Shown here: positions 7,909 to 64,000 of the stretch, piece by piece
Layout: each line of letters opens with the position of its first letter
Position numbering within the stretch: the first letter of the stretch is position 1
NCBI GenBank assembly: GCA_950295325.1
Contig: OX485805.1
Location: forward strand, 44,850,758 to 44,914,757
Origin: Polytrichum commune
Taxonomy: Eukaryota > Streptophyta > Polytrichopsida > Polytrichales > Polytrichaceae
Reading direction: 5' to 3'
Length of the DNA: 64,000 bases
Program-made: the position numbers and the translations under genes
Notes under the pieces: generated by a model
Told to the model about the DNA's origin: nothing
Seen by the model: only the letters and a program-made list of their open reading frames with translations
Database searches by the model: none

Positions 7909-10900
7909 CTTGAAGAAAAGCAAAGCAAAGAAAAGAAAAGAAAAGAAAGCCGTGAAAACCGAATCAACCTCCAATCTTTTTCCTAGATCCTTACCTCAAG
8001 TCTCACACTCAGTCATTGAAGGATGATGTAACATCCCTTGTGCCCAAACATCATCATGTGTGCCAAAAACATGTGACCAAACCTATCAACCGGGAGTTGC
8101 CACTCAAATAGTTTTGAGTTGAGTTTGCGATTGCGGATAAGCGTCCAACCAACATCAATTTCTCATTGAAGATTTGTGTCTTGTTTTGATCCATTTTCAA
8201 CATGAAGTGGATGTTTCGAAAGATAGTATGTTAGAGTCGTTCAACTGCCACAATGAGACAAACTAGTATTGTTTTATTGGATGAATGGCAGACAATCAAA
8301 TGGAATGCACATGTCCGGGATTGAATTTCCAACTCTACTTCAAGGAGCTGCAAAGAGTCTCGTTGTTGATGCTCAAATGTTTGAGAGGAAAATATTCCAC
8401 TCCAACATCATTTTGCAAGAAGATATTTGAGAGAAATTCCTTTGTTAATCTCCAACACCTGCAACATGATCTTCCACATCATTTGTAAAGTAGCAGCAAA
8501 GACACCACAATTAAAGCAACAACATGTATATTAGAGGTGAAGTGCCTTGTTAGCCTCTTTCCCTTGCCAAATGATCCGTGGATTTTGGTGTGCTAATGAC
8601 ATGTGTATGTTATTTAGTCATCTCAGAGACACGCTCTCTTCGACTTCCTAACTTGGGCAATCTTTATGTCCTACATCTGGACCTAGAAACCATGCCCCTT
8701 GTATTTCCTTGGGATACGTCTATTTATATGTAATTACGATGAATTGGTAGAATGACATATTTATTTGGAAACTTTGTATGTTATCAATAGGTTAAAGGCT
8801 ATGGAGCAACTACCTTTTGCAAACGACTATCATGATATTCCACATGCAAGTCCTTGCTAAATCAAATATTGTTTGTGTTCTTTTACTCAATATTGTAGTG
8901 TGTAAGTAGCAACTACGGGTTTCATTTCTATCACCATGATTGTCATTGCTTGTATTATATGAGATACAACCATAATCGGAAAATCAGCATCCCACCCATT
9001 CAAGTCACTTACAACATAGTTGATAATTTGCTTTTCAGAGTTAAAATATTCGAAAGATTGTATGTACATGAGACAATGGAAGGATGATTACATGAGGTTT
9101 GGCGATGTGAAAATTGCAAAACATCTAGTGCAATAGAATCTTGTAAGATCGGTAGCAATGTATTTCTAAATGAGACCTACATATGTTTGTCATAACAACC
9201 CATCGACCATCACTAAGAACATGAAAAAGAATACTAAACAATGGAGAGGAAGAGATCCTTAACTGCTTATATGATACTTGGTGTTGATAGGTCCACATGT
9301 GCCAAAACAAGGTTGAAAGTGCATCATATTTGATAATCAAAAGCATTAGAGGTTGTTGTTTTTCTCTATAAAAAAAATTCATGCACATGGAGCATAAGCC
9401 TTTCTCCCCTTGCACTTCATTGCTCTTATTTCCACCGACCTGTAACATTTTCCCATGCATCCAAACACAAATTGGTCAAATTCCAATAAGATTGATTGAA
9501 GTCTCAATCATGTGTCTTGCCTAAGTCAATCATTTTGCAGACAAAATGAACATTTTCCTCAAAATAATTGCCACACAAATGTACACGACTCTCCAAAACA
9601 AGAAATGTGCAAGTGATACCTACCTAGCATTTATGCTTTTAACATCGGAATTTGTCCGATATTGATAGTTTAACAATTGAAATCAACATAATTTGAGGTT
9701 GAGTTTTTTCAAGAGTTATTGGACCATAATTGGTCATACCAACAATTGTAAAGAGGCGTACTCAATTGGAACTTCAATATGATGGCAAGTGTGGGCAAAC
9801 ATTCATGCATTGCTTAGGAGACAATTGAAACCGACATTCTCATGGATGAATGTTGGAAGATGAAACAATAAGTTCATGGATGATATTCTTGCTATGAACA
9901 TACTTGGATCCCACCGAGCAAATATTCTTAGAGAATTGGGGACAATCTATGATATTTAAGTCCCTATTATATGAAACATAAGCAAAATTATATATTAGTA
10001 TAGTAGATTAATTATTATGATCAAGGCATGACAAAAGGTCTCACTAAGGTTCAACAATGTTCTTGTTTTTCAATAATTATACTTATTTCAAAGGGGGCAA
10101 GCTTCATGAAGGCCCCACTTAGATGAGCAACTGAAATTATGTTGCCATGTAATGTGATTGTGTGAATGTAAACGATTACAAATGTGGATGTGTTCACAAA
10201 GTTACACCTTTTGTATGTTCTCACACACTTTAATTTTTTGTTGCAAGGTTTGCAAACCATTTCTCTTTCATGGGTAGTGAGTGGGTAGTTATCTCATTTC
10301 ATGTGTTTTGTTATTTGAGAGTGAATGTATGTAGTATTGTGGTGTGTTAAAAATTGTCCATGCTATTAAAAAAATCCTTGTTATAATGACATTTGGAAAA
10401 TAATTATGTAAATGATGGCATTTAACCAATGAAAGTATAAAACTACAAAACAATAGGGTGCCCATTTTTAAGACCAACACACATAACATGTCCTTTGATA
10501 TAACATTGATTTGATCGAGGAGGTTGACATTCACATGAGGAGTGTCCCCCCAAGGGCATGGAGTGACAAATTCCTGGTCTCAATGATTTTTATAATAATC
10601 AAATCGAGTTTATGGTCCCTTTGATTTATGAAGGTAATTATGATGTTAATATCAAAATTAGTGGTATGGACCACAAATGCATAAACTTCACATAACTAGC
10701 AAGAGGTTGTGTTGCCAGTTTAAAATAACACTTACGATTTTGTGCTTATTTTCTTGATTGTTTTGTACCATAGATTGTGGTTGGGTTCTTTGTTGCATGA
10801 CAAATCGTTCTTATTGAATATAACAATTTATGAAAATCTTACTATCATGAATTTCAACTTAGACACTATCTTCCACCTTTTTTGTACATTGTATTTCTAA

Positions 10901-17944: not shown

Positions 17945-18355
17945 CACGGGGAGGTCACTTCATTGTCAAGTTGACACCACGTGCGGACAAAGTTTGCTAC
18001 CCCTATATTACATGCCATATATAATTTTAAAATTTATGATATTTTTTCTACATATACATAACCATTGATAGTATCTTTTGTATACTTTTTTGAAAATTTT
18101 AGTCATCTTTATTTTTTTTTAGTAATTGTTTTAGTTCGATTATGTGTCATTCTAGTTAGAAATGGTATGTTTTATGAAAAAAGAAAATCATCAAATTTAA
18201 TTACCACTTTTGACTATGTCATAGGTACTATGTATATCTACTCATGAAAAAAAAATGATAAAATTTTGACCCATTTTGGTGGTGCAACTTACCAAAAGAA
18301 GATTTTTTTTGGTCGCATGTGGTGTTCAACTTGACAATGGAGTGATCTACCCGTG
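17945..18355. mobile_element. 411-bp hAT-type MITE, copy 1, with 8-bp target duplication
   Basis: The element starts CACGGGGAGGTCACTTCATT and ends with the complementary arrangement ...GTGATCTACCCGTG, giving terminal inverted repeats of about 40 bp. It is flanked by an exact 8-bp direct repeat CTAATATG (17937-17944 and 18356-18363). An 8-bp duplication with CA..TG-type ends is the hAT signature. The interior is AT-rich and non-coding. A second copy with a different exact 8-bp duplication is at 55044-55452. Confidence 0.9.
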
Positions 18356-36953: not shown

Positions 36954-39104
36954 TTAAGATTGAAGATGTATTTCTCTCCCTTGCACCTCTCGCTTGGCAT
37001 TCAGGAGCCAAGCGTACCTCTCTTTGAGTGCTGGGTTCTTGGCCAAATTACTTCCTCTTGGACTAGAGTTGTAAAGCGTCTGTTCATCAATCCCCTTCTC
37101 AAAATTTGCAGTGCTCTCTTTTCCCTGTCTGTCATTTAGAAAACGCACACTGACTTTGAATGGTGATGAAGATTGGGGCTGCTTTGGAACAGACAGAAAA
37201 TGTTTCATCCATTCTTTTGGTTTGTGATTCTCAATAGTGGTAGTCTCCATTGTATACAGTGTTGTCATCTCCTTGTCTGGGACACTTATTTGGATGTGAA
37301 ATGTTTTCTTCTCAACAAATGATGTGATGAAGAATGCTCTTCCCTCTGCCGGAGCTGGTAAAGTCACATGATGGAGGAGGTAAAACTCATCTTTTGCTTC
37401 CAAAATTATGTATCTTTCCAGGTTTCCAACGATGAACGATTCAGCTTCTCCCCATTCTTTTATGTGCACAGTTTTTGTGTTGTGGTTCTGTGAGAAATGG
37501 ACAGAGAATATGCACCTGGGGCCACGGTAATTGCATGTGTTGATTGGGCATTCAAGAGGAATGTACTTACAGCTGCTTTCGTGTAGTTTGCGTGTGTTCA
37601 ATTTCAACATTTCATTGCACCCGTGAGCAACGTGCGCACAACTTACTTTGAGTGATTCAAGAATCTTCTCGATGGCTCGGTTTCTGATGACTCCGATTGG
37701 CTTCAAACATGAGGGACATCCCTTGATGAGCTTCTTGCAGCAGGCTGAGCAGGCAAGATGGCCATTTTGACACTGTTTCCACACAACATATTCAGAACAC
37801 CAAATATATCACTGTGTTGAGCAGAGCTAGCTGCATACCATAATCTTACCCTGGTAAGTCTATACATCGAAATCAAGGGTGAGGACATGACTGGAAGATT
37901 TTGAAGAACAAAGATCAATTGAGGCTCAACATAATGACTAATAGACAGAGTGACTCTGTCGCTCTGTTGGCCTGCTAAACTGCGGACTGTCAGCATCAAA
38001 TCCACGCATGGGAGTCGTTCCTCCCATGTCAACTTTCCTCCCGCAACTGTTGATAAGCTCAATTCAGAACTTTCACGAAGAGACAGGCTAACTCTAACAC
38101 TGTCTCCACACATTCTGAAAACCAAAAGACACCCAATTGTTTTGAGCAGCGCTATATACCATATTCTTACCCTAGTAAGGCTATATATTTAATTCAAGGG
38201 TGGGGATGTGAATGAAATTCTAATTTTTTTGAAGAGCAAAGATCAATTCAGTCTCAATGTGATGACTAACAGGCAGAGTGTGACTTTGTCACTGTCTCGG
38301 CCGGCTGAACTTATACAGACTGTTAGCATCAAATTATGATTCATCTCCAAATTTCCTTCCACAACTGAATTATGAGCTGAATTCGGAACTTTCACCAAGC
38401 GATTAGATAGCTAGTTTCAGAACGTAATGACCACTACCAAGAATACCTTACTGAGCTTCATGACTTGGAAGAGCATCATGCTCCGTGCATTAGCGTTCCA
38501 TTTTTTTCTTTCTTTCTAAAAACCTTCGTGAGTCCATGGCAAGCAGCTCTCAGATTCAAGCAAGATCACAGCTGTATACACAATGAGGAATATCATAAGT
38601 GAGTACCTGAAACACTGGGGATGAGAAGTGCTCCATGCAGATAGTGCAGTCCAGGGTGTCTAGGTCAAAGTCATACTTGGGCTTGGCAATAATGTTTTCT
38701 CCGTCATGTGCAATAGAAGGGGCTTTTCCAGCATCGATGCTAATCTCTCCATGGGATCTCTTCACACCTTTCGCAGCCACGCTTTCCAGTGGGTTTTGGC
38801 TCTGCGTTAGAAGGAATAGACGAAAAGGAAATTTAGCATAATAAAACCGTTAATTACACGTACACTTAATCCTCCACCAGATTTCCACTACACAGCCCTA
38901 ATTAAACGTCTTAAGAGGTCACCGTTGCCACCTCTTCAATATATTCTCCAAGAGCCCGGGACTCACATCCCATAAATGACCGCAACACGTGAGATTCATT
39001 ACAACAATAGTCGATCTTGCATCGAATACACACACCTTCATCTCTTGCTCCTCCTCTGCTCCTCTGGCTCTGCAAAGCAATGAAGGAGCCCTTCCTAACC
39101 CCAT
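36954..39104 (-). CDS. SINA-like RING E3 ubiquitin ligase
   Basis: Minus-strand exons: first exon ending at 39036 (start at 39104 or, internally, 39041), 38801-38607, and 37772-36954, all phase 0. This gives 360 or 339 residues. Numbered from the 39041 start, the C3HC4 RING finger uses C54, C57, C68, H72, C75, C78, C86 and C89 (CTICMEHF, CQNGHLACSACC, CPSC). An intron splits it between C57 and C68. A SIAH-type zinc-finger region follows (CAHVAHGCNEML, HESSCKYIPLECP, FSVHFSQNH), then a TRAF-like C-terminal domain. SINA proteins dimerise and ubiquitylate substrates for proteasomal degradation. The start is uncertain because exon 1 is tiny and was inferred from a donor AAG-GTGTGT and an acceptor TTCTAACGCAG. 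The RING intron holds a tandemly duplicated exon-like segment. Confidence 0.9.
37816..38420 (-). repeat. Tandem duplication (about 324 bp) inside the SINA RING intron, one copy exon-like
   Basis: Copy A (about 37816-38138) and copy B (about 38139-38420) share order and sequence throughout, such as GAGCA(A)AGATCAATT and GACTAA(T/C)AG(A/G)CAGAGTG. On the minus strand copy A is open for about 99 codons and bounded by a good acceptor (TTTTGGTTTTCAG, exon would start 38114) and donor (GGTAAGA, exon would end 37850). Copy B is broken by stops. The 265-nt exon would not keep frame between the SINA exons, so it is probably not part of the normal message. Confidence 0.6.
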
Positions 39105-43600: not shown

Positions 43601-45757
43601 GACGACATGGCATGGGGGATAGGAGAAAGCATGCATGACTATCAATTCAAAACAACTTTTCCCCTCCTTTTCTTAAAGCTATAATTTTGTCTAATTAGTG
43701 TGGGTTATCATTTGAAGTTATGAATTGCTAAGTACTTTTTTAGTGAGGTATTATTTTTTATCCAAATAATATAAGTGGTTGGTATGCACATTGAAGAATA
43801 TGATATAACTTAGTTGGTTAATAATGATAACATCAGTATAAAGATATGGCAATGAGTAGCTCCAAATGGTAACCTTGGCACACTAATTAGACAAAAAAAT
43901 GTATATGGGGGCATGGTGGCATCGTGGTTGGTCATTGGGGGGTGGGGGGGCTTATGTTCATGATCATGGGCATGGGCATACATGCGTATGGTAGGTAAAC
44001 AACGGCATGGGTGCATGGATGCATGGGTGCTCAACGTTTGGTTCACCTAGGATATTAATTCATATGCAGGGGTGCAACGGATTGGAGTGGCATGGGTTCA
44101 AGCTAGTATCATTCATGTGTACTCATAATTGGATGGAGACTAGGTCTAAATGCTCCCATTGGTCTAGACCTCGTGACTTGTAGTTGTAATTTTGATACCC
44201 TTACCCATACATGATTGACTCTTGTGTTTGATATATCATGTGGTGTCATCCATATGGCCATTCTATTTTGTCATTAGTATCTTATACATTGTAGAAGGCT
44301 CACTATTTCATCTTTACCTATGTCGGAATGTAGTTTTCACGTGGGATACAAATGGTCTTAGCAATTGTGAGCATGACACATGCCAAACATTTAGGGGAAA
44401 GTTATTATTTTATGACAAAATAAAGAGACATCCATGGTACCATATGATTAAGTCATTTAAATCAAAGAAATTGACCATGACTAGTGATACATGAAAGCTT
44501 ATGAGGTATTTTCAAAGGAGTACAATTTAGTGGTATTTAGAATATATTATTTAAGTTAATTTTTATTTTCAAATTATAATATACAATTAAAATCACATCA
44601 TAATTATACTTCTACACCTATTCACCTAACTATGTAACGGAATCCTTACTGGAAATGCATGAAGATGGTGATCATGTTTGTGATGTATCTAGCTTATTCT
44701 TATAGCATTTGGAATTAGGAATTTATTTGAAGTACTTATCAATTTATTAGATACATAAATTAATTTATGTTTTGCATTATTTGATCTACGATTTATTCAT
44801 TTGGCATGGGTTAGTTTGCACCCCTCACATACTTAATATTGGCTATGCATATATGACAGGTGTGTGACCATTGCAAAGACGTATCAATTTCCCATTCATG
44901 TGTTTGAGTCGTGATTATCTATTGGACACACTAGTTAGAATTGCCCTTTGGAGGTCAACCCCATATTCCTAAACCCTAAAGCCATGTATCAAGGTGATTC
45001 TTTAAAATTATGGTTCTCAAAACTTCAAATAGTTGCACTTTATTCATATATGTGATTGTTTAAAATCAAAACCCAATCAAAAAACCTTCTTAAAAACCGT
45101 TGGTTCTTTGTTGGATCTTTAAAAAAAAATTAAATAAACAGGGCCAAAGGTTCATATATTATGAAAACTCTCAAAACCTGAAAACCAAAGGTTCTTTGCT
45201 TCTAGATTTGTTTGTGAAAAGTGGAACTGGAAGTTAGTAACAAAATCAAATACCCACCCAAAATTGGTAAAAACCTCAATGCACACAAATACAAACTAAA
45301 TTGGATGGAAGACCTCTTTGTTGAGCTCAAATAATAATGTTTAACTCAACATGATCATATGCAGGACATAAACATGAGGGTATGATCTAAATCCATAGCA
45401 CAAAATTGGACTCTCAACCACAAAAGAACCTTAAGCCGCAAGATTACTCTAACCCAACAACCAAGCTATCAATGACAATAAAACCTCGAGCCGCTCCAAT
45501 ACTCTAAACCAAAATCTAAACTCTTTCTCATAGCAAATCCTACGGCAACACCAACAATCTCAAGCAAAAAACAAAACCCACAGCCACAACGTAGGGAGAA
45601 CTTGGAAACCCTAGGAAAGACGTTGACAACTAAACCCTTGTCATCCACCCTCTGTAGGTCCAAAATGAACATAAATTTCATCAATTAATTTCAATTCAAC
45701 CCATTTATATTTTCACCAATTTTTTTCCTTCTCTAACATCATAACATTAAATAACAA

Positions 45758-46862
45758 GAGCAAAGGTAGCTCTACTTTTGAGTTTTACTTAGGCTATATT
45801 TAATCTATTTGGGTAGTTACTTTCAATGCTTAGAATTAATTATGTCGGTTTCTAGGACAAAGCTAATGCCAAGTGGTGGCAAAGGTTCTAATCTAGGCTA
45901 ATTATGATCTAAACAAATCTAAATAGCTATAAAGCAGCGCGAAAGTTGGCGAGGTCAAAAAGGTAGTTGCACTTTTTGGAAAATTCTCCCAATACCCGCA
46001 TTGGAAACCTCTTTGATACCTTTTTGAAGCTATTGTATTTGATTAATTATCCATTCATTCACCCTTGCTTTGCAAGCTCTTCCCTTCTTGTTAAGGTAAT
46101 ATTGTGGGTACTCAAAGGGTACCCTCCTAGCATTGCTACTTAATGTTATGAATCATTATTGGAGAACATGTATTACTTCTAAGGAAAATATAATATTCCC
46201 ACATTCTTGCACCTCTATCTTAATTATAATTCATTTTTCCCATTTTGGAATACCCTTGATTTTTCTAAATAATTTTCAAAAATTTATCCATATGTATTAT
46301 GTGTCACCCTATAATTGTTTCCATTTTGTTTCTAGGTTACTAGAGGCTCTAAATTATTCTAGTGAGGTTGATTGGGGATGGATAAAAAACAAACCTGAAG
46401 TAGCAAGCCCGGATTGACCTTCCCAAAAGAGCATCAAACCAACGCGTGCCGGTTTGGTGCTCTTTTAAGAGCAAAGGTAGCACTAAGTTTGAGTTTAGTA
46501 GGCTATTTTTAATCTATTTGCGTAGTTACGTTTAATGCTTAGTATTTATTATGTCGGTGTCTAGGACAAAACAAATGCCAAGTGGTGGTAAAGGTTCTAA
46601 TCTACGCTAAATTACGATCTAAACAAATCTAAATAGCTATAAAGCAACGGGAAAGTTGGTGAGATCATAAAGGTAGTTGCACTTTTTGGGAAAGTCTCCT
46701 GACACCCGCATTGGAAATGTCTTTGATACCTTTTTGAAGATTCTATATTTGATAATTATCCATTCATTCACCCTTGCTTTGCAAACGTTTCCCTTCTTGT
46801 TGAGGTAAATTTGCGGGTACTCAAAGGGTACCCTCCTAGCATTGCTACTTAATGTCATGATT
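45758..46862. repeat. Direct repeats of about 390 bp separated by about 320 bp
   Basis: Copy 1 (about 45758-46151) and copy 2 (about 46469-46862) both begin GAGCAAAGGTAGC and end GCATTGCTACTTAATGT(T/C)ATGA, with close similarity throughout (for example GCCAAGTGGTGG and GGGTACTCAAAGGGTACCCTCC). The arrangement could be a small non-autonomous LTR element or a segmental duplication. I see no primer-binding site or TG..CA ends, so LTR identity is not supported. Confidence 0.75.
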
Positions 46863-47181
46863 CCCCTAGGTAGGCCTTGTAATGGCAATTAATGTTAATT
46901 AATATTGAAATTTCCATGTTAACATTTTTTCCCCCCCATGGACATAACACAAATTAGAAGTATAGGAATTACAAAACAAAGGAAGGATTGCTTGATGTAT
47001 GAGATATTTTCCAATGAAAATTTGGAGTACCTCATAAATCCATATGGATCAATTTCAACAATATCTTGGATTCTTAAGTTACCAAATACATGGTACATGT
47101 AATTCAATCTTCATGTCCCAAGACATATATTCCTTCATATTAGATGTATTTGCACTCCAAATACATGATTGAGTATAATAG

Positions 47182-49400: not shown

Positions 49401-49580
49401 CCTTTGGCCAGTAATCAAGAGCTACATATATCACAAGGAAGGAAAACGGAGCAATTAATTAATGGAGTATTAAGTATACATGTTGCGTGCAGCCACAATA
49501 GACCAAGCACTCGGAAGCGACTCCCGAGTAGATATGTACAGACAATTTGGAAGGAGCACCATAAATTTAGGGCTGGCATT

Positions 49581-50799
49581 CAACCTCCCCCTACGAGCTT
49601 TTCGGGGGAGGAAGATCCGGGCAAGGGCAACCCTCTAAAAAGAAATCAAGATTTTCTGGACCTGACCAAAAACTTCTGCCCGTTTCGTCTGACTTCGAAA
49701 AGACCATTGCCCTTGCATTCTTGAAGCCCACTTATCCACAAATCTCATATTGAGTGCACTTCACCTTCAAGGTCCAAAACCCAGTATATTTGTTCACTTC
49801 CATTGAGTAAATGAGCAATTCACCGGGATTTTACTTTGGATGTGCAACCGTCAATAAAACATGTAATCAACTTGGAAGCCAAAAACATTACAAAACCCTC
49901 ATTAGCATTGAGGTTAGAATTTTTGTGACTTACCATTGAAAGGGTCTTTGTCATTCTAAAATGGAACTAAAATTAGTTTTATTTATTTATTTTTAGTATA
50001 TTTATTCTATAATAGTTTAAGGTAATACCTTCTACTTCCACAAAGTATTCATACACATTCAAACTAATTAAGTGTGATTGAATGTAATTAAGTCTAATTA
50101 ATCCTAATTAAATAAATTAAATCAAGAAGTATGCTAACAAAATTAATTAAGCCTAATTAATTATATAATAACAAACTGGAATTAAAGATGATTAATTCAG
50201 ATATGAGGAACGATGTGCTAAATTACACTTGTTTGGAATGTGTATGTATTCTTGTAGAAACCTAGGCCTTGCGCTCAATTACCTTCTAATATGGTTATTT
50301 AGACTTAATTACATTCAATCACACTTAATTAGTTGAAATGTGTATGCATACTTTGTGAGAGTAGAAGGTATTAACCTGAACTATTATAAAATAAACATAC
50401 TAGAAATAAAACATTATTTGTAGTCCCTTCCATTTTAGAATGACAAAGACGCTTTGAATGGTAAGTTACAAAAATTATGACCCCAATGCCAATGAGGGTT
50501 TTGTAATATTTTCAACTTCCAAGTTAATTACATGCTTTATTGACAGTTCACTTCCGGAATGAAATCCCAATCAATGGTTACTTTATTAAGTGGAAGTACA
50601 CACACATACACATATTAGATTTTGAACCTTGAAGGTGAAGTGTACTCCATATGGGATTTGTGGACAAGTGACCTTCAAGAATGCAAGGGCAATGATTTTT
50701 TTGAAGTTTGGCAGGGCGGTCCAGAAAATCTTGATTTCTTTTGGGAGGGTTGCCCCTGCCCATATCTACCTCCCCCGAAAAGCTCGTAGGGGGAGGTTG
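49581..50799. repeat. 1.2-kb foldback: about 500-nt inverted arms, 205-nt loop
   Basis: The left arm (49581-50095) and right arm (50301-50799) are inverted copies. The outer ends pair as CAACCTCCCCCTACGAGCTT with its complement at 50780-50799, and the innermost 34 bases (50062-50095 and 50301-50334) pair perfectly. Mid-arm blocks such as CATTCTAAAATG (49952) and CATTTTAGAATG (50431) fall at the expected mirror positions. The loop is AT-rich. If transcribed it would form a long double-stranded hairpin. It may be a foldback transposon. Confidence 0.85.
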
Positions 50800-52178
50800 A
50801 AGGTCGGCTGAAATTGAGTCCAAGGTCCAGGTGTCGGTACTTAGGGACCTGGACTTTGCAACCCATGAAGGTAGGGCCAGGACTAGATGCCCAAGGCTTG
50901 CGTAACTCAAACGCAGAACAGTGCAAGGACGGCAGAGCTCCAGTAAATACAGATACTTTATGTAGGACAGTAACAGCTAAAGTAGAGGGAATCTTCCCAA
51001 GAATTCGGGCCCTGAGGTATCACTGAGTGCAGGTGACTGCGTCTTATGAAAATCTGGCCATGATCCTGGCAAGGAAATGCACTCTGCGCCCAGCTTCTTC
51101 TTCCCCGCCATAGCCACCTTCCTCTTGCGCTGCCGTCTCTCATTCTACTACTCTCTGAGCTCCCTCTCCAAGTGGGAGGAATTCATGTTCTATCCCGCCT
51201 GATTGACGACCAGAAGGTTGTCAAGCGTCTGTTGTTGTTTCACAATCCGTTGAGTCTGTTAATATGGGTGCGTTCAGCTCGCGTCTGTACGTCCTGCTAG
51301 AATTCTCACTATTGAATTTCTCCATATAGATCCAACACCCCGAATACATAGGATGAAACAACATCTCCACTGCCAGCCGTGATCGACCACGCAACGGAAT
51401 TGGGTTAGTGAGTCTTTTGAAATGAGTGGTTGTTCTTCGGAATCTCTGTGCTGGGTGTTGAAAGACACGGTTCGTGAGGATGACGAGCGGGAATCTGGAG
51501 GGCGATTGATCTCAAGACACATATATATATCCGGCTTCTTACATAGGTATGCGTAACCCCTTCCTATTTGAAAATTGCATGACTTTCTCTCCAGATTAGT
51601 TTGTTCAGATCCTTTTGCATGCTAGTAGAATGATTTGGGGAGTTAGTTATGAAGCGCATCACAAGTGCACACTGGAGTTTCAGGTAGGGACCCAACTCAA
51701 AGACGTGGGAGTCTAGCCCTGGTCATGACGATATATAGTCACCAATGAAAGTAACCCACTCCGTTGTAGACCCCTCCTTCCCTGCCATAGCCACCCTTCG
51801 CTCCTCTTGCCATTGGCTCTCGTCGTCCAACATAGCTCGCTCTCGCGATCAACCAGTTAGCACCACTTTGTGATGCCGGACAGGAAGCACATGACGAGTG
51901 ATGCAAGTTGTGGTGAAAATTTTGATAAGTTAGTGCAGAATAGTGTACATTGAGTTCCGGCTCCATTAATTTCTTGGTTCAAGTCTGTTGGCTCCACACA
52001 TCCTGTAGTGTCCTGTACCAATCTGTTGTCCGTTTTCATGTGAGATTTTATTCTAAACCAAATCTAGAGTTGGAGGATCTTAAATTTCATGAGAGGCAAG
52101 TTCAAATATATTTTCGAATTCAGTGGTTTCAAATATGTTGATATGGACTCTGGCAAGCTTATGCCTGTAGGTGTCTAA

Positions 52179-52676
52179 GGGCCACTTCACACATGAGCCA
52201 AGAGCCATGACCATGAATTTTTGAGAGCCCAAAAGAAGTGTTTTAAGGCCGTCCTGAGACATTTCCCAAAATCATGTAGTGTGGTCACAGGCCCTCAAGT
52301 GTAATGTGAAGTCATATGTGGTTGTGTCCTCAACCGAATGCTTTTTCAACGAGTTCTATTCATCGGGGTCCTTACACATGATGAAATGCAGTAACTCAAC
52401 AGTTGTGAGGTTTCGAAGTGCCATGGTCACTTGGTTTTGTGTTAGGCCTACCTCCCAGAGGTGGTTTGGAGAATAGTCCAAGTGACCATGAAACATGATC
52501 CACTTGATGCCATGTTGGAATCCATGTAGACTTTACATCCATCTTGCATCAACTTACTCAGTGGGTCCCTGAAGCGTAGTATGAAGCGAATTTACACCGA
52601 CTCCACCTTTTCCACCAGTGAGATTTGCTTGAAGTGCAATGGAAACGGGCCCTGAGTCTCGTGTGTGAAGTGGCCC
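52179..52676. mobile_element. 498-bp TIR element related to the one at 1607-2103
   Basis: The left end is GGGCCACTTCACACATGAG and the right end, reverse-complemented, is GGGCCACTTCACACACGAG. The left flank is TAA (52176-52178) and the right flank CAA, one mismatch from a 3-bp duplication. Length and terminal sequence match the element at 1607-2103. A left-truncated relative of its right half, with the same right flank, lies near 53500-53763, produced by segmental duplication. Confidence 0.65.
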
Positions 52677-53995
52677 CAAGTTAAACATGAACTATCTACC
52701 TCTATTGTAACAAAAAAATTTCTAGATTTTTCTCGCCAGGCCATTTTTTTGGTGGTGAGTAGACATGCCCAATTCGGTTGAAGCCTGGCATACTACACTG
52801 ATGACTTTAGTTTGCTGGGTTCTAAGAATACTTCATAAGTAACATGTAATCCAATATAAAACACTTCTTGGGCAGAGTGAGTCTGCGTTACAATCCATCA
52901 CAGTCATTTATGCTCCAATGATCCCAATGGGTTCAAGGGCCACTTGCAGGGGATTCGGGGAAGCTTCTATCCGATGCTCCGAGGTCCAAGCATCTACTCA
53001 GAAGTTCACAACCAGAGTAGGCAGGACAGAGGGCGTGAATCGCGACTAAATAAGTATAGATAATCCGGTCAGCAAAGGTGGATCCTGGAGGAAGAAACTA
53101 CAGAATCTGGTACCTATTTAAAGTTCGAGTGTCGATCATTGCCCGGCGCCGCAGCTCATGCATATGGACTCGACAAGAAATGAAAGATTATTACATTGAA
53201 TTACTGTAGGTGTCTCTCGAACCCAGAACAGTGCAAGGACGGCGCGGCTCGAGTAAATATAAGCTTAGATACTTTGGCCAGTAATAGCTACAGCACAGGG
53301 AAGTAATACGGAGTAATAGAATATTTAGTGTTCCACTTACAGTCACAACAAGGAAAAAGGACTCTGGAGCGAATCCTGAGTAGATAGGTACGGACAATTT
53401 GGGAGGAGCACCAGAAATTCAGTCCAAGGTCCAGGTGTCGATCTTTAGGGACCTCCATGATGGTAGGGAAGATTCCCAAGAATATAGTATAATAAATCAA
53501 CGGTTGTGAGGTGTCGGAGTGCCATGGTCTCCCGGTTTTCTGTTAAGCCTATCTCCAAGAGGTGGTCTTGAAAAATAATCCAAGAAACATGATCCATTTG
53601 ATGCCATGTAGGAATCCATGTCGATTTTACATCCATCTTGCATCAACTTACTCAGTTGGTTCCTGAAGCGTAGTGTGAAGCGAACGTAGACCGGTTCCAC
53701 CTTTTCCACCAGTGAGATTTGCTTGAAGTGCAATGGTCACATGCCTTGAGTCTCGTGTGTGAAGTGGCCCCAGGTTAAACATGAACTATCTGCCTCTATT
53801 GTAGTTAAAAAATATCTAGATTTTTCTTGCCATGCCATTTTTTGGTATTGAGGAGACATGCCCAATTCGGTTGAAGCCTGGCATACTACACTGAAGAACT
53901 TCAATTTGTTGGGTTCTAAGAATCCTTTATAAAGTAAACTGTAATCCAATACAAAACACTTCTTAAGTAGAGTGCATTTGCATTACAAGCCGTCA

Positions 53996-55043
53996 TAGTC
54001 ATACATGAACCAAAATTATGGGTTGCGATGTCAGCATGAGCTTACAATTGCTTTTGGGAATCATGTTTGACAAATTTGAATAAGTTGCGGATGAATGATG
54101 ATGTGATGTTTACCCGACTTGAGGTGATCCATGTCTCAACACATTACAATAAGGTAGTTCAAACTTTTGTAAATGATAATGTACTTCAGTTGGTTAAAGG
54201 AAATTGACTCATTTGCTATGATAAATAGTTCTATTATTGTGGGCTGTAGGAATTGCCTTGAGCTCACACCAATTCACATTTGAAGAAGCAACGAGGTTGT
54301 GTTCATTCTTAATCCATGCCCATTTTCTAGATTAAAATTAGTGTGAGGCACATTAATTGTTTTTCTAGGATATTGAAGGGGGTCATGTTTTTAATTACAT
54401 AAGGTGTTGGTTGGAAGTCTCAAGGAAGACCAACTTCGGCAAGACAATGTCTTCACCCACATTATTTTCACCCAACTAGAGAATTATAATGGCCACGTTA
54501 ATTATTTTTACTTTAATTTTTTGACGACATTACTTCAACTATTTAGTGTAATTGATACATGACCTAACTCAACTAGGGCTATGAATGCTAGGAAGTTTAG
54601 TCCTCCAATTTAATGACATGGTCATGTGGGAAGAATTGTGTCATTTAGGAAGTGAATCCCTTTTGAGGTAGTGAGTAGGTCTAAATTGCTCATCCATCAA
54701 GCCAAGCTGGTCTGGAAACTTGGGACTTGCTTTTGCATGATGGAAAGAGTATGTAGCTACATGATCAACCACTTTAAGTAGACATCATGCACATGTGTTG
54801 GAGTGTCTTGCATATGTCTCTCAAATTGTGACTCCTATTGTGAATGCAGAGAGCAAAGAGCACCATGGTCACTATTCACTCAATTACAACATTATGAAAC
54901 ATGATGCGGATTCTTTCAAATCAATTCAAGATGTCTTCTGAAATTTTGGATGTGCATTGAGAGGGTGACCCCGTTATAAGGAGGTGACGTTGATGCATAG
55001 GTATGTCATCTCCCTTTAAGAGTTGGGGAATCTAGTATGCTAC
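53996..55043. other. Intergenic, no gene seen
   Basis: No supported coding sequence or RNA gene. The stretch ends at TATGCTAC (55036-55043), the left target duplication of the following element. Confidence 0.4.
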
Positions 55044-55452
55044 CACGGGGGGATCACACCCCCTTACATTTCATAACCACGTGCGATAAAAGTTTGCTAC
55101 CCTATATTACATGCCATAGATAATTTTTAAAATTATGATATTTTTTCTACATACACATAACCATTGATAATATCTTTTGTATATTTTTTTGAAATTTTTA
55201 GTCATCTTCATTTTTGTAGTAATTTGTTTAGTTCAATGTTGCGTCATTCTAGTTAGAAACGGTATGTTTTATAAAAAAAACAAATCATCAAATTTGGTTA
55301 CCAATTTTTACTATGTAATAGATACTATGTATATCTACTCATGAAAAAAAATTCATAAACTTTTGAACCATTTTGGTGATGCTTTATGTAAAAAGTAGAT
55401 TTTGTTTTATCGCACGTGGTGTTCAACTTGACAATGAAGTGCACCCCCCGTG
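55044..55452. mobile_element. 409-bp hAT-type MITE, copy 2, with 8-bp target duplication
   Basis: This is the same family as 17945-18355. It starts CACGGGGGGATCAC and ends GTGCACCCCCCGTG. An exact 8-bp duplication TATGCTAC flanks it (55036-55043 and 55453-55460). The interior aligns with copy 1 end to end (for example GTTTGCTACCC and TAACCATTGATA). Part of the left inverted repeat has diverged, but the right one keeps GTTCAACTTGACAATG. Confidence 0.9.
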
Positions 55453-57035: not shown

Positions 57036-60000
57036 ATGGCAAATGTTATGCGGCTAGCAATGGGGAGTGTGGAATTTCCTGCAATATCATTGTTGGACGA
57101 AGTATTGAATAGAAGACAATGCGAGAATTTGTTCTTTAACTTTCAAAATGGTGTGCAAGCATTGCAAAGCATCACAAGTGGTCATAACGAGGTGTTCCGC
57201 AAAGCAGAAGAAGATCTATATCAAATTGTATACAAAGCAAAAGTGCTAATTGAAGATTGTTGCAGAGAAGATTGGTGTCGCGTTGTAGTGACACAATTGA
57301 CCAACAAAGAGGGCTTCAGAGAACTCCTTTTGGACTTTGAAAATTGTTTTCGTACAATTTGTGATATATCTTGCTTTCACCATTTGGCTCAAGAATCGAA
57401 AATTCTTGCGATCAAGAATGATATGACATTCTACCCAGCATCCATCGATGTAGTTAAAGAGGATCAAACTTCAATATGTGGAAGGTTTTCTAAGCATTTG
57501 GATTCATGCACAACCACGGATTGCGATAATTGCAAACTTGCGCAATACCTTAAGGAGTACCTAAGGAGTCTACAACATGTTGAAGGTGGTGGATTGGACA
57601 AAATTGATTTTCCTTACAATTATCCTCGCCCCAAATATAAAGGAAATCCACCTAAGGTTTTGGGAAGGTCAAACAACATATGTGTGTTCTTGACAGATTG
57701 GTTGGGTTTGGAGTCTGCAACAAAGGTGTTTGACATCCGTGATCCCAAGGACATAAAACGACTTTGGAAAGAAGCAAGTATTTTGGGAGGGTTGAATCAT
57801 CCAAACATCATCAAGTTTTATTGTTGTGGTTTTCTTGAGGTGGAAAACCAATTTGAGCTTGTTATGGAATGTGGAAAGAAAACCTTATCTGATCATCTAA
57901 ATGAAGAAGGTCCTCTTGAAGAGACAAATGCAATGGAAATTATGTTACAAATTGCAAATGGAATGTGCTACCTTCATGATATGAAGGTGGCTCATCGTGA
58001 CCTAAAGCCTGGTAATGTTGTTGTGAGTCTACCAAATGATTCGACGTTGAAAAATCTCGGGTGCATACAAGTGAAATTACTTGATTTTGGTATTTCAAAG
58101 GTTGAAGTGAAAGATTATAAGGAGGTGCCCACAGGTCGATACATAGGAACTCATGGATACATGGCGCCAGAGATCATGACGAATGAATTATCGGAGGTGG
58201 ATGCTTTGAGAGCTGATGTGTTTAGTTTTGGCATGTTGTGTTCTGATATTCTTTCGGCAAAGAAACATCCTTGTGATTCATTACGTGAATATCGAAAGTA
58301 CATATTAGAAGATTCAAGTAGACCAAAGCTGCCAGAATCCTATTCAGAAGGATTAAGATCAATGGTGCATGATTGTTGGTCGTTGGATCCTTTGGAAAGA
58401 CCAACATTTCTTGATATTCACAACAAACTTACAAGTTTGAAAAGACCTACAATCCTCAAGGATGTGGTTACGATCAGAGGAGCTACAAATGATACACGTG
58501 GCTCCTTATGGAAAATTTTATCATACTTATGCTTTGTTTTGGTCTCTTGGATTCGATACTTATGGTTTATATTCAAATTCAAACATGCTAATCGTCCAAC
58601 CTTATTTCCAAGCGCCCACAAGGTCTCTAATGGATCATCATCAAATCCATTTTCCGTGAAGGTAAGCGTGTGGTTGAGTTTATAAATGGAAGTCACTAGA
58701 TTTCAATTTTATTTGGGATAATTGAAGAGGCCTCACCAACCCTATCATGTTAATAACACTCACTGAATTTGAGAAGTTGGAAATTTTGTAGGTCAACAAT
58801 GATGACAACATGAAAGAATTGTCCAAATTAATTGGAGTCCAAGACAAAGTTTTCCAATTGGAAAGGCAACTTCAAAGTGTTGATTGTCTAGGACTTGTTG
58901 GCATGGGCGGAAGTGGCAAGTCAACGTTGGCTAAGGCTTTGAGTGACCACATCTCCAAGGGATTTGATGCAACATGTTTTGTGTACGACTTGAAGGATGA
59001 AACTTGTACATTGCAAGAACAACACAACTCCAAAGGCATGCAAGATTCACGTCCCCAAGCCAAAACATTGATAAAGACACAAGAGATATTGAAAAATATT
59101 CAAAGAACAAAAACAATTCTCATTGTGGTGGACAATGTGGGCAAACAAAGTCAACTACAACAACTATTGGATGATGGTTTATTCAGAAATGCCAATGGTA
59201 GTAGGTTGATTGCAAGTTCTCGTGATTGGAACTCCTTGGAACAACATGTACCCATGGATGGTAAAGTAGACATGCAAACCCTAGATGGGACCCAAGCTAT
59301 GGAGCTATTTTTAATGTGTGCGTTTGGGACCAATCAATCATGTTCACCTCATTTAAAACACGTGGTTGAAAAGATTGTGGATGCATGTTGTGGGCTTCCT
59401 TTGAGTTTGGAGGTGATGGGCAAATGCATGCAAGGGGAAGCACGATTGAGAATATGGGAGCGAACATTGTATAGAGTGTTGAGGGCAAGACATGATGGAG
59501 GTTCAGATGAGAAGATTTGGAAGACATTGAGGATAAGCTTTGATGAGCTAAATGATCTAGAAAGAAACATGTTTCTAGACATAGCATGTTTCTTTTGTGA
59601 AGATGCATATCTTGATGATGTTTATCCAACAAAAGAATCATATCTTAAAATGTGGGATGTTGATAACAACATTGCCAAAAATGTCTTGAAAAGGCTTCAA
59701 GAAAAATCATTGTTGAAAGTGAACGACTGGGAAGGTTTTTACATTCATGATCAATTGCGTGAGATGGGCCGTCTGATTACGGAAATGGATTTTACGGGGA
59801 CTCGAATTTTTAATATAAGTTACCCAGCATTCCTCAATCGTTGTAAAGAAAAGGTATATGGTTTGGGTTTTGTACAAGTTGATATTCCTTATTAACTTCT
59901 TGACAAGTTATATTAAATTGCACAAGTTGATCTTATATGCCAATAGCTCTAAATCCATTGTATTTGAGATGAAAAAAAATCAACTTAATATGTGTTTTGT

Positions 60001-62213
60001 TGTGTATGTAGGGCATAGAACTTGTCCAAGGCCTATCAATTACAAATTTGGAGAACAAGTCAATGCATGAAGGAGATGTGGAAATAAAATCGATGGAAAA
60101 ACTTTCTCTACTCCAAGTCCGATGTTGTGAAAATGTTAACATGCTTTCTGCTATTGTGAAGAAATCACCCAATCTGAAAGGGTTGGGCATCCAATTCTCA
60201 CCCAAACATATTGACTCTACAATGTTGACAAACCAATTCATTGGGAAATTTTTCATTGATACCCTAGAAAATCTCCAAAATTTGCGATTGCTTGCGATGT
60301 CCAATTGCAATTTGTTGGGATCAATTTCTTGTGAATACTTGAATATGATGCAGATTCGGGTATTATCATTCTCAAATTGCGAACAATTGGATCAATTCCT
60401 CATTGGAGTTGATAAACTCATCACCTTAGAAGAGTTATGCTTCCACAATTGCAAAGACCTTGATGGCACCTCTATTCAGCTAGCCAACCTCTCAGCCTTG
60501 GAAGAATTATACTTTTTCAAATGTCGATATTTAAGAACAATACCACAAGGCTTTCGTAACTTGATAAAACTAAAAATATTGTGCTTGTGTGAATGCGAGG
60601 CTTTGGAGGAGTTCCCTGTTGGAGTAAGCAACCTTGTAGCACTGGAGCAACTCCATTTCGCAAGATGTCGGGCATTGAAAAGGATCCCGGAAAGCTTTGG
60701 CAACTTGACGAAACTAAAAATACTGCGCATGTATGAATGTGAGGCTTTGGAGGAGTTCCCTGTTGGAGTGAGCAACCTCGTAGCCCTGGAGGAGCTCAAT
60801 TTCGTGAGATGTCAGGCACTGAAAACGATCCCGGAAAGCTTTGGAAACTTGACAAAATTGAAAATACTGCGCATGTGGGAATGTGAGGCTTTGGAGGAGT
60901 TCCCTGTTGGAGTGAGCAACCTTGTAGCCCTGGAGGAGCTCGATTTTGCAAGATGTCGGGCATTGAAAACGATCCTGGAAAGCTTTGGCAACTTGACGAA
61001 ACTAAAAATACTGCGCATGTATGAATGTGAGGCTTTGGAGGAGTTCCCTATTGGAGTAAGCAACCTGATAGCGTTGGAGGAGCTCGATTACGCAAGATGT
61101 CCGGCATTGAAAACGATCCCGGAAAGCTTTGGCAACTTGACGAAACTGAAAATGTTGTACATGTCTGGATGCAAGGCTTTGGAGGAGTTCCCTGTTGGAG
61201 TAAGCAACCTTGTAGCCCTGGAGGAGCTCCATTTTGCAAGATGTCGGGCATTGAAAACGATCCCCGAAAGCTTTGGCAACTTGACGAAACTAAAAATACT
61301 GCACATGTATGAATGTGAGGCTTTGGAGGAGTTCCCTATTGGAGTAAGCAATCTTATAGCCCTTGAGGAGCTCCATTTCCAAACATGTTGGGCATTGAAA
61401 ACGATCCCGGAAAGCTTTGGCAACTTGACAAAACTGAAAATGTTGTACATGTCTCGATGCGAGGCTTTGGAGGAGTTCCCTGTTGGAGTAAGCAACCTTG
61501 TAGCCCTTGAGGAGCTCCATTTCCAAGCATGTCGGGCATTGAAAACGATCCCGGAAAGCTTTGGCAACTTGACAAAACTGAAAATGTTGTACATGTCTCG
61601 ATGCGAGGCTTTGGAGGAGTTCCCTATTGGAGTAAGCAACCTTGTAGCCCTTGAGGAGCTCCATTTCCAAACATGTCGGGCATTGAAAACGATCCCGGAA
61701 AGCTTTGGCAACTTGACGAAACTTAAAATACTGCGCATGTCTGAATGTAAGGCTTTGGAGGAGTTCCCTGTTGGAGTAAGCAACCTCGTAGCCCTGGAGG
61801 AGCTCCATTTTGCAAGATGTCCGGCATTGAAAACGATCCCGGAAAGCTTTGGCAACTTGACGAAACTGAAAATGTTGTACATGTCTGGATGCAAGGCTTT
61901 GGAGGAGTTCCCTGTTGGAGTAAGCAACCTTGTAGCCTTGGAGGAGCTCGATTTCGCAAGATGTCGGGCATTCAAAACGATCCCGGAAAGCTTTGGCAAC
62001 TTGACAAAACTAAAAATACTGCGCATGTATGAATGTGAGGCTTTGGAGGAGTTCCCTATTGGAGTAAGCAACCTGATAGCGTTGGAGGAGCTCAATTACG
62101 CAAGATGTCCGGCATTGAAAACGATCCCGGAAAGCTTTGGCAACTTGACAAAACTGAAAATATTGCGCAGATGTATGAATGTGAGGCTTTGGAGGAGTTC
62201 CCTGTTGGAGTGA
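57036..62213 (+). CDS. Protein kinase - NB-ARC - LRR receptor-like protein (moss PNL class)
   Basis: Exons 57036-58661, 58792-59853 and 60012-62213 are all phase 0 and encode 1,629 residues. Residues 1-200: helical region recalling the HeLo/DUF1221 bundle of plant MLKL-like kinases (weak, by eye). About 205-470: kinase with beta-3 Lys230, HRD (320-322), DFG (350-352) and APE (377-379), but a degenerate glycine loop (LGRSNNI). 491-514: hydrophobic segment, possibly membrane-spanning. 543-896: NB-ARC with P-loop GMGGSGKST (579-587), kinase-2 ILIVVDNV, RNBS-B GSRLIASSRD, GLPL motif CCGLPLSLEV, TIR-type FLDIACFF and an MHD variant IHD. 897 onward: LRRs, ending in eleven 48-residue repeats (ALEEFP.GVSNL.ALEEL / ALKTIPESFGNLTKLK). 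NB-ARC-LRR proteins are intracellular immune receptors. The frame ends at 62213 because of a 2-base insertion at about 62169. LRR coding continues beyond in other frames. Confidence 0.92.
60879..62176 (+). repeat. LRR macro-repeat unit 1 (1,298 bp)
   Basis: Nine 144-bp repeats plus two extra bases (AG in GCGCAGATGTATG, about 62169-62170, where other copies read GCGCATGTATG). The next unit begins at 62177. All coding repeats of unit 1 are in the frame of the receptor gene. The two bases shift the frame and lead to the stop at 62211-62213. Confidence 0.9.
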
Positions 62214-63474
62214 GCAACCTTGTAGCCCTGGAGGAGCTCGATTTTGCAAGATGTCGGGCATTGAAAACGATCCTGGAAAGCTTTGGCAACTTGACGAAAC
62301 TAAAAATACTGCGCATGTATGAATGTGAGGCTTTGGAGGAGTTCCCTATTGGAGTAAGCAACCTGATAGCGTTGGAGGAGCTCGATTACGCAAGATGTCC
62401 GGCATTGAAAACGATCCCGGAAAGCTTTGGCAACTTGACGAAACTGAAAATGTTGTACATGTCTGGATGCAAGGCTTTGGAGGAGTTCCCTGTTGGAGTA
62501 AGCAACCTTGTAGCCCTGGAGGAGCTCCATTTTGCAAGATGTCGGGCATTGAAAACGATCCCCGAAAGCTTTGGCAACTTGACGAAACTAAAAATACTGC
62601 ACATGTATGAATGTGAGGCTTTGGAGGAGTTCCCTATTGGAGTAAGCAATCTTATAGCCCTTGAGGAGCTCCATTTCCAAACATGTTGGGCATTGAAAAC
62701 GATCCCGGAAAGCTTTGGCAACTTGACAAAACTGAAAATGTTGTACATGTCTCGATGCGAGGCTTTGGAGGAGTTCCCTGTTGGAGTAAGCAACCTTGTA
62801 GCCCTTGAGGAGCTCCATTTCCAAGCATGTCGGGCATTGAAAACGATCCCGGAAAGCTTTGGCAACTTGACAAAACTGAAAATGTTGTACATGTCTCGAT
62901 GCGAGGCTTTGGAGGAGTTCCCTATTGGAGTAAGCAACCTTGTAGCCCTTGAGGAGCTCCATTTCCAAACATGTCGGGCATTGAAAACGATCCCGGAAAG
63001 CTTTGGCAACTTGACGAAACTTAAAATACTGCGCATGTCTGAATGTAAGGCTTTGGAGGAGTTCCCTGTTGGAGTAAGCAACCTCGTAGCCCTGGAGGAG
63101 CTCCATTTTGCAAGATGTCCGGCATTGAAAACGATCCCGGAAAGCTTTGGCAACTTGACGAAACTGAAAATGTTGTACATGTCTGGATGCAAGGCTTTGG
63201 AGGAGTTCCCTGTTGGAGTAAGCAACCTTGTAGCCTTGGAGGAGCTCGATTTCGCAAGATGTCGGGCATTCAAAACGATCCCGGAAAGCTTTGGCAACTT
63301 GACAAAACTAAAAATACTGCGCATGTATGAATGTGAGGCTTTGGAGGAGTTCCCTATTGGAGTAAGCAACCTGATAGCGTTGGAGGAGCTCAATTACGCA
63401 AGATGTCCGGCATTGAAAACGATCCCGGAAAGCTTTGGCAACTTGACAAAACTGAAAATATTGCGCAGATGTAT
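62177..63474 (+). repeat. LRR macro-repeat unit 2 (1,298 bp), open in a shifted frame
   Basis: This is a near-identical copy of unit 1 at an offset of exactly 1,298 bp (for example TTGCGCAG at 62163 and 63461). It encodes the same nine LRR repeats without interruption, but in a different frame from the upstream gene (continuous from 62105 to the stop at 63511). It carries the same two-base insertion at its right junction. It is either untranslated tail, a second coding part joined by splicing, or a recently duplicated piece. Confidence 0.88.
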
Positions 63475-64000
63475 GAATGTGAGGCTTTGGAGGAGTTCCC
63501 TGTTGGAGTGAGCAACCTTGTAGCCCTGGAGGAGCTCGATTTTGCAAGATGTCGGGCATTGAAAACGATCCTGGAAAGCTTTGGCAACTTGACGAAACTA
63601 AAAATACTGCGCATGTATGAATGTGAGGCTTTGGAGGAGTTCCCTATTGGAGTAAGCAACCTGATAGCGTTGGAGGAGCTCGATTACGCAAGATGTCCGG
63701 CATTGAAAACGATCACGGAAAGCTTTGGCAACTTGACGAAACTGAAAATGTTGTACATGTCTGGATGCAAGGCTTTGGAGGAGTTCCCTGTTGGAGTAAG
63801 CAACCTTGTAGCCCTGGAGGAGCTCCATTTTGCAAGATGTCGGGCATTGAAAACGATCCCCGAAAGCTTTGGCAACTTGACGAAACTAAAAATACTGCAC
63901 ATGTATGAATGTGAGGCTTTGGAGGAGTTCCCTATTGGAGTAAGCAATCTTATAGCCCTTGAGGAGCTCCATTTCCAAACATGTTGGGCATTGAAAACGA
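63475..64000 (+). repeat. LRR macro-repeat unit 3, partial
   Basis: This is the third copy, cut by the window end after about 3.6 of the 144-bp repeats, in the third frame. It differs from unit 2 at 63715 (A instead of C, changing a conserved Pro codon in ESFGN-preceding text to Thr), so it is not a simple assembly echo of unit 2 at that position. Confidence 0.85.

What the first reader, a model, noticed from the sequence alone, without database searches (positions are those of the whole stretch)
60879..64000. LRR macro-satellite whose 1,298-bp period breaks the reading frame at every junction
The sequence shows a 144-bp coding repeat packaged into near-identical 1,298-bp units (9 x 144 + 2). 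The two extra bases shift the frame, so units 1, 2 and 3 are each open in a different frame. The frameshift is present in both complete units, so it arose before the duplication spread. This looks like very recent expansion or homogenisation in an immune-receptor gene, possibly a reservoir of LRR variants, or a collapsed or duplicated assembly.
Basis: seen in the sequence. Interest (0 to 1): 0.85.

Follow-up and report, generated by a model that had tools for sequence, protein, structure and literature searches.

The report
Moss-type immune gene with frame-broken repeats
The end of this window holds a moss-type plant immune-receptor gene whose repeated recognition region was recently copied in a large block with two extra bases, so as sequenced only the first block can be read as protein; growth of such repeats is known, while the frame-breaking block is an unusual twist that could also be an assembly error.

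Summary
From 60879 a 1,298-bp period (nine 144-bp monomers plus 2 nt) runs to the window end. Units 1 and 2 are identical over 1,298 bases; the visible 526 bases of unit 3 differ once. The 2 nt sit at both visible junctions, not at the entrance to unit 1. Each unit is open in its own frame; the frame from upstream meets TGA 41 nt after the extra bases. The array is the LRR exon of a gene with kinase and NB-ARC exons and two phase-0 introns, as in the moss PNL class. As assembled it encodes 1,629 aa. Changes between monomers favour predicted exposed beta-strand positions; the rest is constrained, so the monomers diverged as coding sequence before the block copy. Best reading: a recognition domain growing by unequal exchange at two levels, the latest step carrying a truncating frameshift. 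Near-identical, copy-variable LRR repeats are known (rice Xa1/Xo1, flax L/M, melon Vat); the frame-breaking block is the new part. A 'reservoir' role is untested. Assembly error is not excluded: own-genome search and structure prediction did not complete.

The parts
57036..58661 (+). Exon 1: N-terminal region and protein kinase domain (542 aa), with a hydrophobic stretch near its end
   Evidence: Pfam Pkinase E 3.1e-39; frame opens at 57015 after a stop; GT donor at 58662 read from sequence; start codon inferred
58662..58791 (+). Intron 1, phase 0, GT-AG, 130 bp, 65% A+T
   Evidence: read from sequence; no cDNA
58792..59853 (+). Exon 2: NB-ARC and winged-helix domain
   Evidence: Pfam NB-ARC E 3.5e-22, WHD_ROQ1 E 1.6e-6; best solved relative Roq1 E 9.3e-31
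59854..60011 (+). Intron 2, phase 0, GT-AG, 158 bp, 72% A+T
   Evidence: read from sequence; no cDNA
60012..62213 (+). Exon 3 open frame: LRR domain up to TGA at 62211-62213; 25 matches to an LRR strand pattern; ends with the out-of-frame tail RCMNVRLWRSSLLE
60603..62168 (+). Ten full in-frame 144-bp monomers (48 aa, two 24-aa LRRs each) and most of an eleventh; the first two begin before unit 1
60879..62176 (+). Unit 1 of the 1,298-bp block repeat
62169..62171 (+). Junction 1: two extra nucleotides (AG or GA) that shift the frame
62177..63474 (+). Unit 2, identical to unit 1 over 1,298 bp; open in the frame 62039-63511; untranslated if exon 3 is read straight through
63467..63469 (+). Junction 2: the same two extra nucleotides
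63475..64000 (+). Unit 3, first 526 bp; one difference from units 1 and 2 (63715 C>A); cut by the window end

Best explanation
This is the LRR exon of a plant NLR immune-receptor gene of the moss PNL (protein kinase-NB-ARC-LRR) class. The LRR domain grew first by repeated unequal exchange of a 144-bp unit (two 24-aa LRRs), under selection that kept the scaffold and changed the predicted ligand-facing positions. More recently a nine-monomer block, with a 2-nt insertion at or near its breakpoint, was duplicated and copied again; the copies differ by one base in what is visible. The 2 nt shift the frame, so the encoded receptor ends at 62211-62213, just past the eleventh monomer, and units 2 and 3 are untranslated 3' sequence. 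Shown: the domain order, the repeat, the frame break, the pattern of changes. Inferred: exon borders without cDNA, unequal exchange as mechanism, truncation of a real transcript, recognition as function. Because the monomers stay homologous across the junction, a later in-register exchange could remove it, so the broken state need not be final (inference).
For: Kinase, NB-ARC and LRR domains in order; two phase-0 introns at the domain borders as published for PNL genes; unit 1 = unit 2 over 1,298 bp. At the ten xxLxLxx exposed codons pN 0.226 and pS 0.080, elsewhere pN 0.036 and pS 0.217; by minimum changes 16 N: 2 S inside and 10 N: 18 S outside, Fisher p 0.0006; 0 of 50,000 random sets of ten codons reach the observed share. 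Exact tracts of 73-126 bp between non-identical monomers at shifts of 1, 2, 5 and 7 monomers fit repeated exchange. Precedents: rice Xa1/Xo1, flax L/M, melon Vat with unequal crossing-over.
Against: No transcript, second individual or raw reads; array exit not in the window; species unnamed; assembly error not excluded. Over all codons pN/pS is 0.40, and the excess at exposed codons rests on only 2 synonymous changes there. Pairwise counts among monomers are not independent. Kinase-type NLRs also occur in monocots, so the moss source is an inference.
Confidence: 0.6

Rival explanations
1. Assembly artefact: a single nine-monomer stretch was copied, or a longer array collapsed, during assembly of near-identical repeats, and the 2 nt are a consensus error at the seam.
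For: Units 1 and 2 are perfectly identical. Near-identical tandem repeats are a known source of assembly errors (PMC6868369, passages), and the melon Vat gene is called misassembled and/or mispredicted in whole genomes (PMC8012345, abstract start). The window ends inside the array.
Against: The same 2 nt recur at both seams, while nine other places read GCGCATG without them, so a context-driven base-calling error is less likely. Unit 3 carries its own base difference. A loop through the 144-bp homology would be expected to give a multiple of 144, not 1,298 (inference).
Confidence: 0.22
2. A plain pseudogene: the receptor is dead, and the frameshift and the block copying are neutral decay. (Overlaps with the best explanation in anatomy; differs in that nothing functional is made.)
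For: The frame break truncates the LRR domain and leaves a long untranslated tail; shortened PNL-class genes are common in Physcomitrium (39 of 45; PMC3352924 passages).
Against: Upstream of the junction the gene is open: kinase, NB-ARC and a 733-codon LRR frame, with GT-AG introns; the only lesions I saw in the gene are the two copies of the junction.
Confidence: 0.2
3. The junction is silently bypassed in RNA or in translation: a 107-nt mini-intron (62064-62170, GTAAGC...GCGCAG) or ribosomal frameshifting carries the reading frame into unit 2.
For: The inserted AG makes a CAG acceptor directly before the ATG of the unit-2 frame. Each of the 24 monomer starts has GTAAGC (20) or GTGAGC (4) after GGA. 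Joining the two would be in frame, both phase 0.
Against: The candidate intron has 54% A+T and 21% T, like exon 3 (56%, 27%) and unlike the gene's own introns (65% and 72% A+T); the exon side of the donor is GGA, not the AAG of intron 1. No in-frame -1 slippery heptamer between 62036 and 62211. No RNA data.
Confidence: 0.04

Closest known systems
PNL (PK-NBS-LRR) class of moss NLR genes (PMC3352924, passages)
   Same: Kinase, NB-ARC and LRR in that order; phase-0 introns between PK and NBS and between NBS and LRR
   Different: The passages I saw describe no near-identical LRR block array and no frame-breaking junction
Rice Xa1/Xo1 NLRs with nearly identical 93-aa (279-bp) LRR repeats (PMC7004385, passages)
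   Same: Near-identical tandem LRR units whose number differs between the three genes compared (five, four, three full repeats)
   Different: zfBED/CC NLRs; one repeat level; repeats within the coding sequence, no frame break described in the passages
Melon Vat NLRs with near-perfect 65-aa repeats, one to seven copies (PMC8012345, passages)
   Same: Repeat gain and loss attributed to unequal crossover or gene conversion; nonsynonymous changes more frequent than expected inside the repeats
   Different: One repeat level; pseudo-Vat sequences with premature stops or insertions exist, but the passages do not tie them to the repeat period
Flax L and M rust-resistance genes, ~150-aa repeats (as reported in PMC7004385 and PMC8012345, passages)
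   Same: TIR-class NLRs with large near-identical LRR repeats; unequal crossover reported at M
   Different: Not known to be built from nine smaller coding monomers or to break the frame (recalled, not tested)
Higher-order repeats of alpha-satellite DNA (recalled)
   Same: Divergent monomers copied as a near-identical multi-monomer block
   Different: Non-coding; here the monomers encode LRRs

Membership tests
PNL (PK-NBS-LRR) NLR | N-terminal protein kinase domain | tested here: met
   Pkinase E 3.1e-39
PNL (PK-NBS-LRR) NLR | Central NB-ARC domain | tested here: met
   NB-ARC E 3.5e-22; Roq1 best solved relative
PNL (PK-NBS-LRR) NLR | C-terminal LRR domain | tested here: met
   LRR_14 E 8.9e-72; 25 strand-pattern matches; its C-terminal end is cut by the frameshift
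PNL (PK-NBS-LRR) NLR | Phase-0 introns between PK and NBS and between NBS and LRR | tested here: met
   Splice sites and phases read from sequence against PMC3352924; not confirmed by cDNA
PNL (PK-NBS-LRR) NLR | NBS domain groups with moss PNL genes in a tree | not tested
   No moss sequences in the collections at hand
Near-identical LRR-repeat NLRs (Xa1/Xo1, L/M, Vat kind) | Tandem LRR units nearly identical in DNA | tested here: met
   1,298 of 1,298 between units 1 and 2
Near-identical LRR-repeat NLRs (Xa1/Xo1, L/M, Vat kind) | Repeats in frame, so copy number changes receptor length | tested here: not met
   2-nt frameshift at both junctions; stop 41 nt after the extra bases. Met only for the 144-bp monomers up to the end of unit 1
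Near-identical LRR-repeat NLRs (Xa1/Xo1, L/M, Vat kind) | Copy number varies between individuals | not testable with these tools
   One assembly only

The most novel reading that the evidence does not exclude
The frame-breaking block is a contingency device. The 2-nt junction confines translation to the first unit, so the array can grow and exchange out of sight of selection, and exchanges across the junction move new monomer sets into the translated part. A stronger form: the junction's AG is a de novo 3' splice site that lets the plant splice in extra units.
Probability: 0.06. Interest if true: 0.8.

Novelty: new variant of a known kind. Interest (0 to 1): 0.4.

Why it matters
It shows two-level growth of a recognition domain within one gene: older monomers diversified at the predicted binding surface, then a young block copy caught with almost no divergence. 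If real, it is a natural test of how plants make and lose receptor variants by array recombination, in a kinase-type NLR class of mosses.

Tried and rejected
Ribosomal frameshifting: no in-frame -1 slippery heptamer (X XXY YYZ) between 62036 and 62211; in any frame of 60012-62211 there are six, all before 60280. Hairpin-driven rearrangement: no inverted repeat of 14 nt or more (seed 9) in 60400-64000. Minus-strand genes: the two 335-aa minus frames (61088-62095, 62386-63393) are 1,298 bp apart and follow from the repeat. One of the two was scanned: its weak Pfam hits are to unrelated families over short stretches (MYEOV2 E 8.4e-6, just under its cut-off; Bac_RepA_C E 1.5e-5, 25.8 bits, just over its cut-off of 25). 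The LRR exon itself also draws such hits (MitoNEET_N E 2.8e-8); I take them as repeat bias. Second NLR copy in the window: outside the gene the kinase, NB-ARC and first-LRR pieces gave no tblastn match better than E 0.27; the rows of the repeat piece were cut at the 60-row print limit, and those shown lie in the array or just before it. Prokaryote relatives: one GTDB scan gave 1 relative from 33 pattern matches (29% identity, Bacteroidaceae MAG), taken as a generic LRR likeness and not studied. N-terminal 228 aa: no Pfam family at E up to 5.

Literature: eight searches. Among the rows listed (at most 20 each) I saw no title or abstract start that describes an LRR block repeat breaking its own frame. 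Six papers were opened, for passages only (PMC3352924, PMC11218826, PMC7004385, PMC8012345, PMC8226289, PMC6868369), so absence from print is not shown.

Limits of the codon test: the eight-codon mask was drawn after seeing the per-codon table (0 of 100,000 random sets reach it; sliding it out of register, the next-best share is 0.478 against 0.684). The ten-codon mask is the standard LxxLxLxx set, but it too was run after that table. Monomer 11 was used only over its first 126 nt, because its end holds the insertion; its distances are inflated for that reason.

Full report
OBSERVATION. Tandem Repeats Finder reports a 144-bp array from 60550 to the window end. At offset 1,298, identity starts at 60879 and holds to the end with one mismatch in 1,824 positions. 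Units 1 (60879-62176) and 2 (62177-63474) are identical; the visible 526 bases of unit 3 differ once, at 63715. Anchor spacing is 144 in 21 of 23 intervals and 146 in the two at the junctions. The extra 2 nt are absent at the entrance to unit 1, where the sequence reads GCGCATG as at eight other places of the array. Units 1, 2 and 3 are open in three different frames.

GENE. The array is the third exon of a gene whose start lies in the window and whose end does not. Exon 1 (57036-58661) encodes a protein kinase domain, exon 2 (58792-59853) an NB-ARC domain with a Roq1-like winged helix, exon 3 (from 60012) LRRs. Both introns are GT-AG and phase 0 as read from the sequence. A published survey gives these introns for the moss PNL class: between kinase and NBS, phase 0, and between NBS and LRR, phase 0 (PMC3352924, passages). 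A later survey describes kinase-type NLRs as enriched in non-flowering lineages and places the majority of bryophyte ones near bryophyte TIR-NLRs, while monocot kinase-NLRs fall in the CC clade (PMC11218826, passages). The best solved relative of the NB-ARC exon here is Roq1, which has a TIR domain (recalled). The source is therefore most likely a moss; this is an inference, and no species could be named.

FRAME. Read through from exon 1, the protein is 1,629 aa, with 25 matches to an LRR strand pattern in exon 3, and ends at TGA 62211-62213 after a 14-residue out-of-frame tail. In that frame there are 47 stops between 62101 and 63600. Units 2 and 3 are thus untranslated unless RNA processing intervenes. 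Adding units would not restore the frame, because the stop comes before the next junction.

SELECTION. Over all codons of the eleven in-frame monomers (60603-62168) pN/pS is 0.40. At the ten exposed positions of the LxxLxLxx strand motif the changes are mostly amino-acid changing (pN 0.226, pS 0.080), while the rest is conserved (pN 0.036, pS 0.217). Counting minimum changes, 16 N to 2 S inside and 10 N to 18 S outside (Fisher p 0.0006); 0 of 50,000 random sets of ten codons hold as large a share. Such positions form the concave surface of plant NLR LRR domains (PMC8226289, passages). So the monomers diverged as coding sequence, and the frame break is younger. Limits: only 2 synonymous changes at the exposed codons, pairwise counts that are not independent, and exchange between monomers, which violates a tree.

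HISTORY. Monomers 1 to 10 (the first two begin before unit 1) differ pairwise by 5 to 25 of 144 positions, with exact shared tracts of 73-126 bp at shifts of 1, 2, 5 and 7 monomers: repeated exchange. The block copy is far younger. With an assumed 7e-9 changes per site and generation (recalled for Arabidopsis, not for moss), the 95% upper bound on its age, or on its last homogenisation, is about 2e5 generations. The left edge of the identity lies about 6 nt right of the extra bases, and the ten other monomers match unit 1 from there for at most 44 nt, so the founding breakpoint lies about 6-50 nt from the 2 nt. By a rough uniform expectation over 1,298 bp (my arithmetic) that is about 4% by chance, which mildly favours one event making both; the array exit, outside the window, would decide.

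ALTERNATIVES. An assembly error is the main rival. The window's own genome could not be searched: nine identical requests did not complete. Against an error: the same 2 nt at both seams, a private base in unit 3, and a period that is not a multiple of 144. For it: perfect identity of units 1 and 2, and the known difficulty of such arrays (PMC6868369, passages). A mini-intron from GTAAGC at 62064 to CAG at 62170 would join in frame, but its base composition is exonic. Ribosomal frameshifting finds no slippery site.

PLACE AMONG KNOWN THINGS. Near-identical LRR repeats varying in number are known in rice Xa1/Xo1 (93 aa) and flax L/M (about 150 aa) and in melon Vat (65 aa, one to seven copies, unequal crossover or conversion, pseudo-Vat sequences with premature stops). 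This locus shares the process. It differs in having two nested repeat levels, a moss-type kinase NLR, and a block period that breaks the frame. I rate it a new variant of a known kind.

Noticed in passing
58515-58571 (end of exon 1): A strongly hydrophobic 19-residue stretch (ILSYLCFVLVSWIRYLWFI, mean hydropathy 1.83) between the kinase and NB-ARC domains could be a membrane-spanning helix.
   Followed up: partly
57036-57720: The 228 residues before the kinase match no Pfam family at E up to 5; their fold was not predicted.
   Followed up: partly
583-905: A 323-bp region that is its own imperfect inverted repeat (78%), with a 41-bp tandem repeat inside: perhaps a foldback or MITE-like element.
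   Followed up: no
52392-52918 and 53493-54013; 45756-46154 and 46467-46863: Direct repeats of about 530 bp (85%) and 400 bp (88%), starting roughly 1.1 kb and 0.7 kb apart, possibly remnants of mobile elements.
   Followed up: no
49579-50101 and 50295-50801: Inverted pair of about 530 bp (80%) with a spacer of about 190 bp, a large foldback element or hairpin source.
   Followed up: no
17976-18355 and 55076-55452: Direct repeat of about 380 bp (86%) 37 kb apart, probably a dispersed element.
   Followed up: no
36954-37808 (minus strand): A 284-aa frame with SINA zinc-finger similarity (E 9.9e-11): a SINA-type E3 ubiquitin ligase gene or fragment.
   Followed up: no
6844-7995 (minus strand): A 383-aa open frame with no Pfam match at E up to 0.1.
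   Followed up: partly
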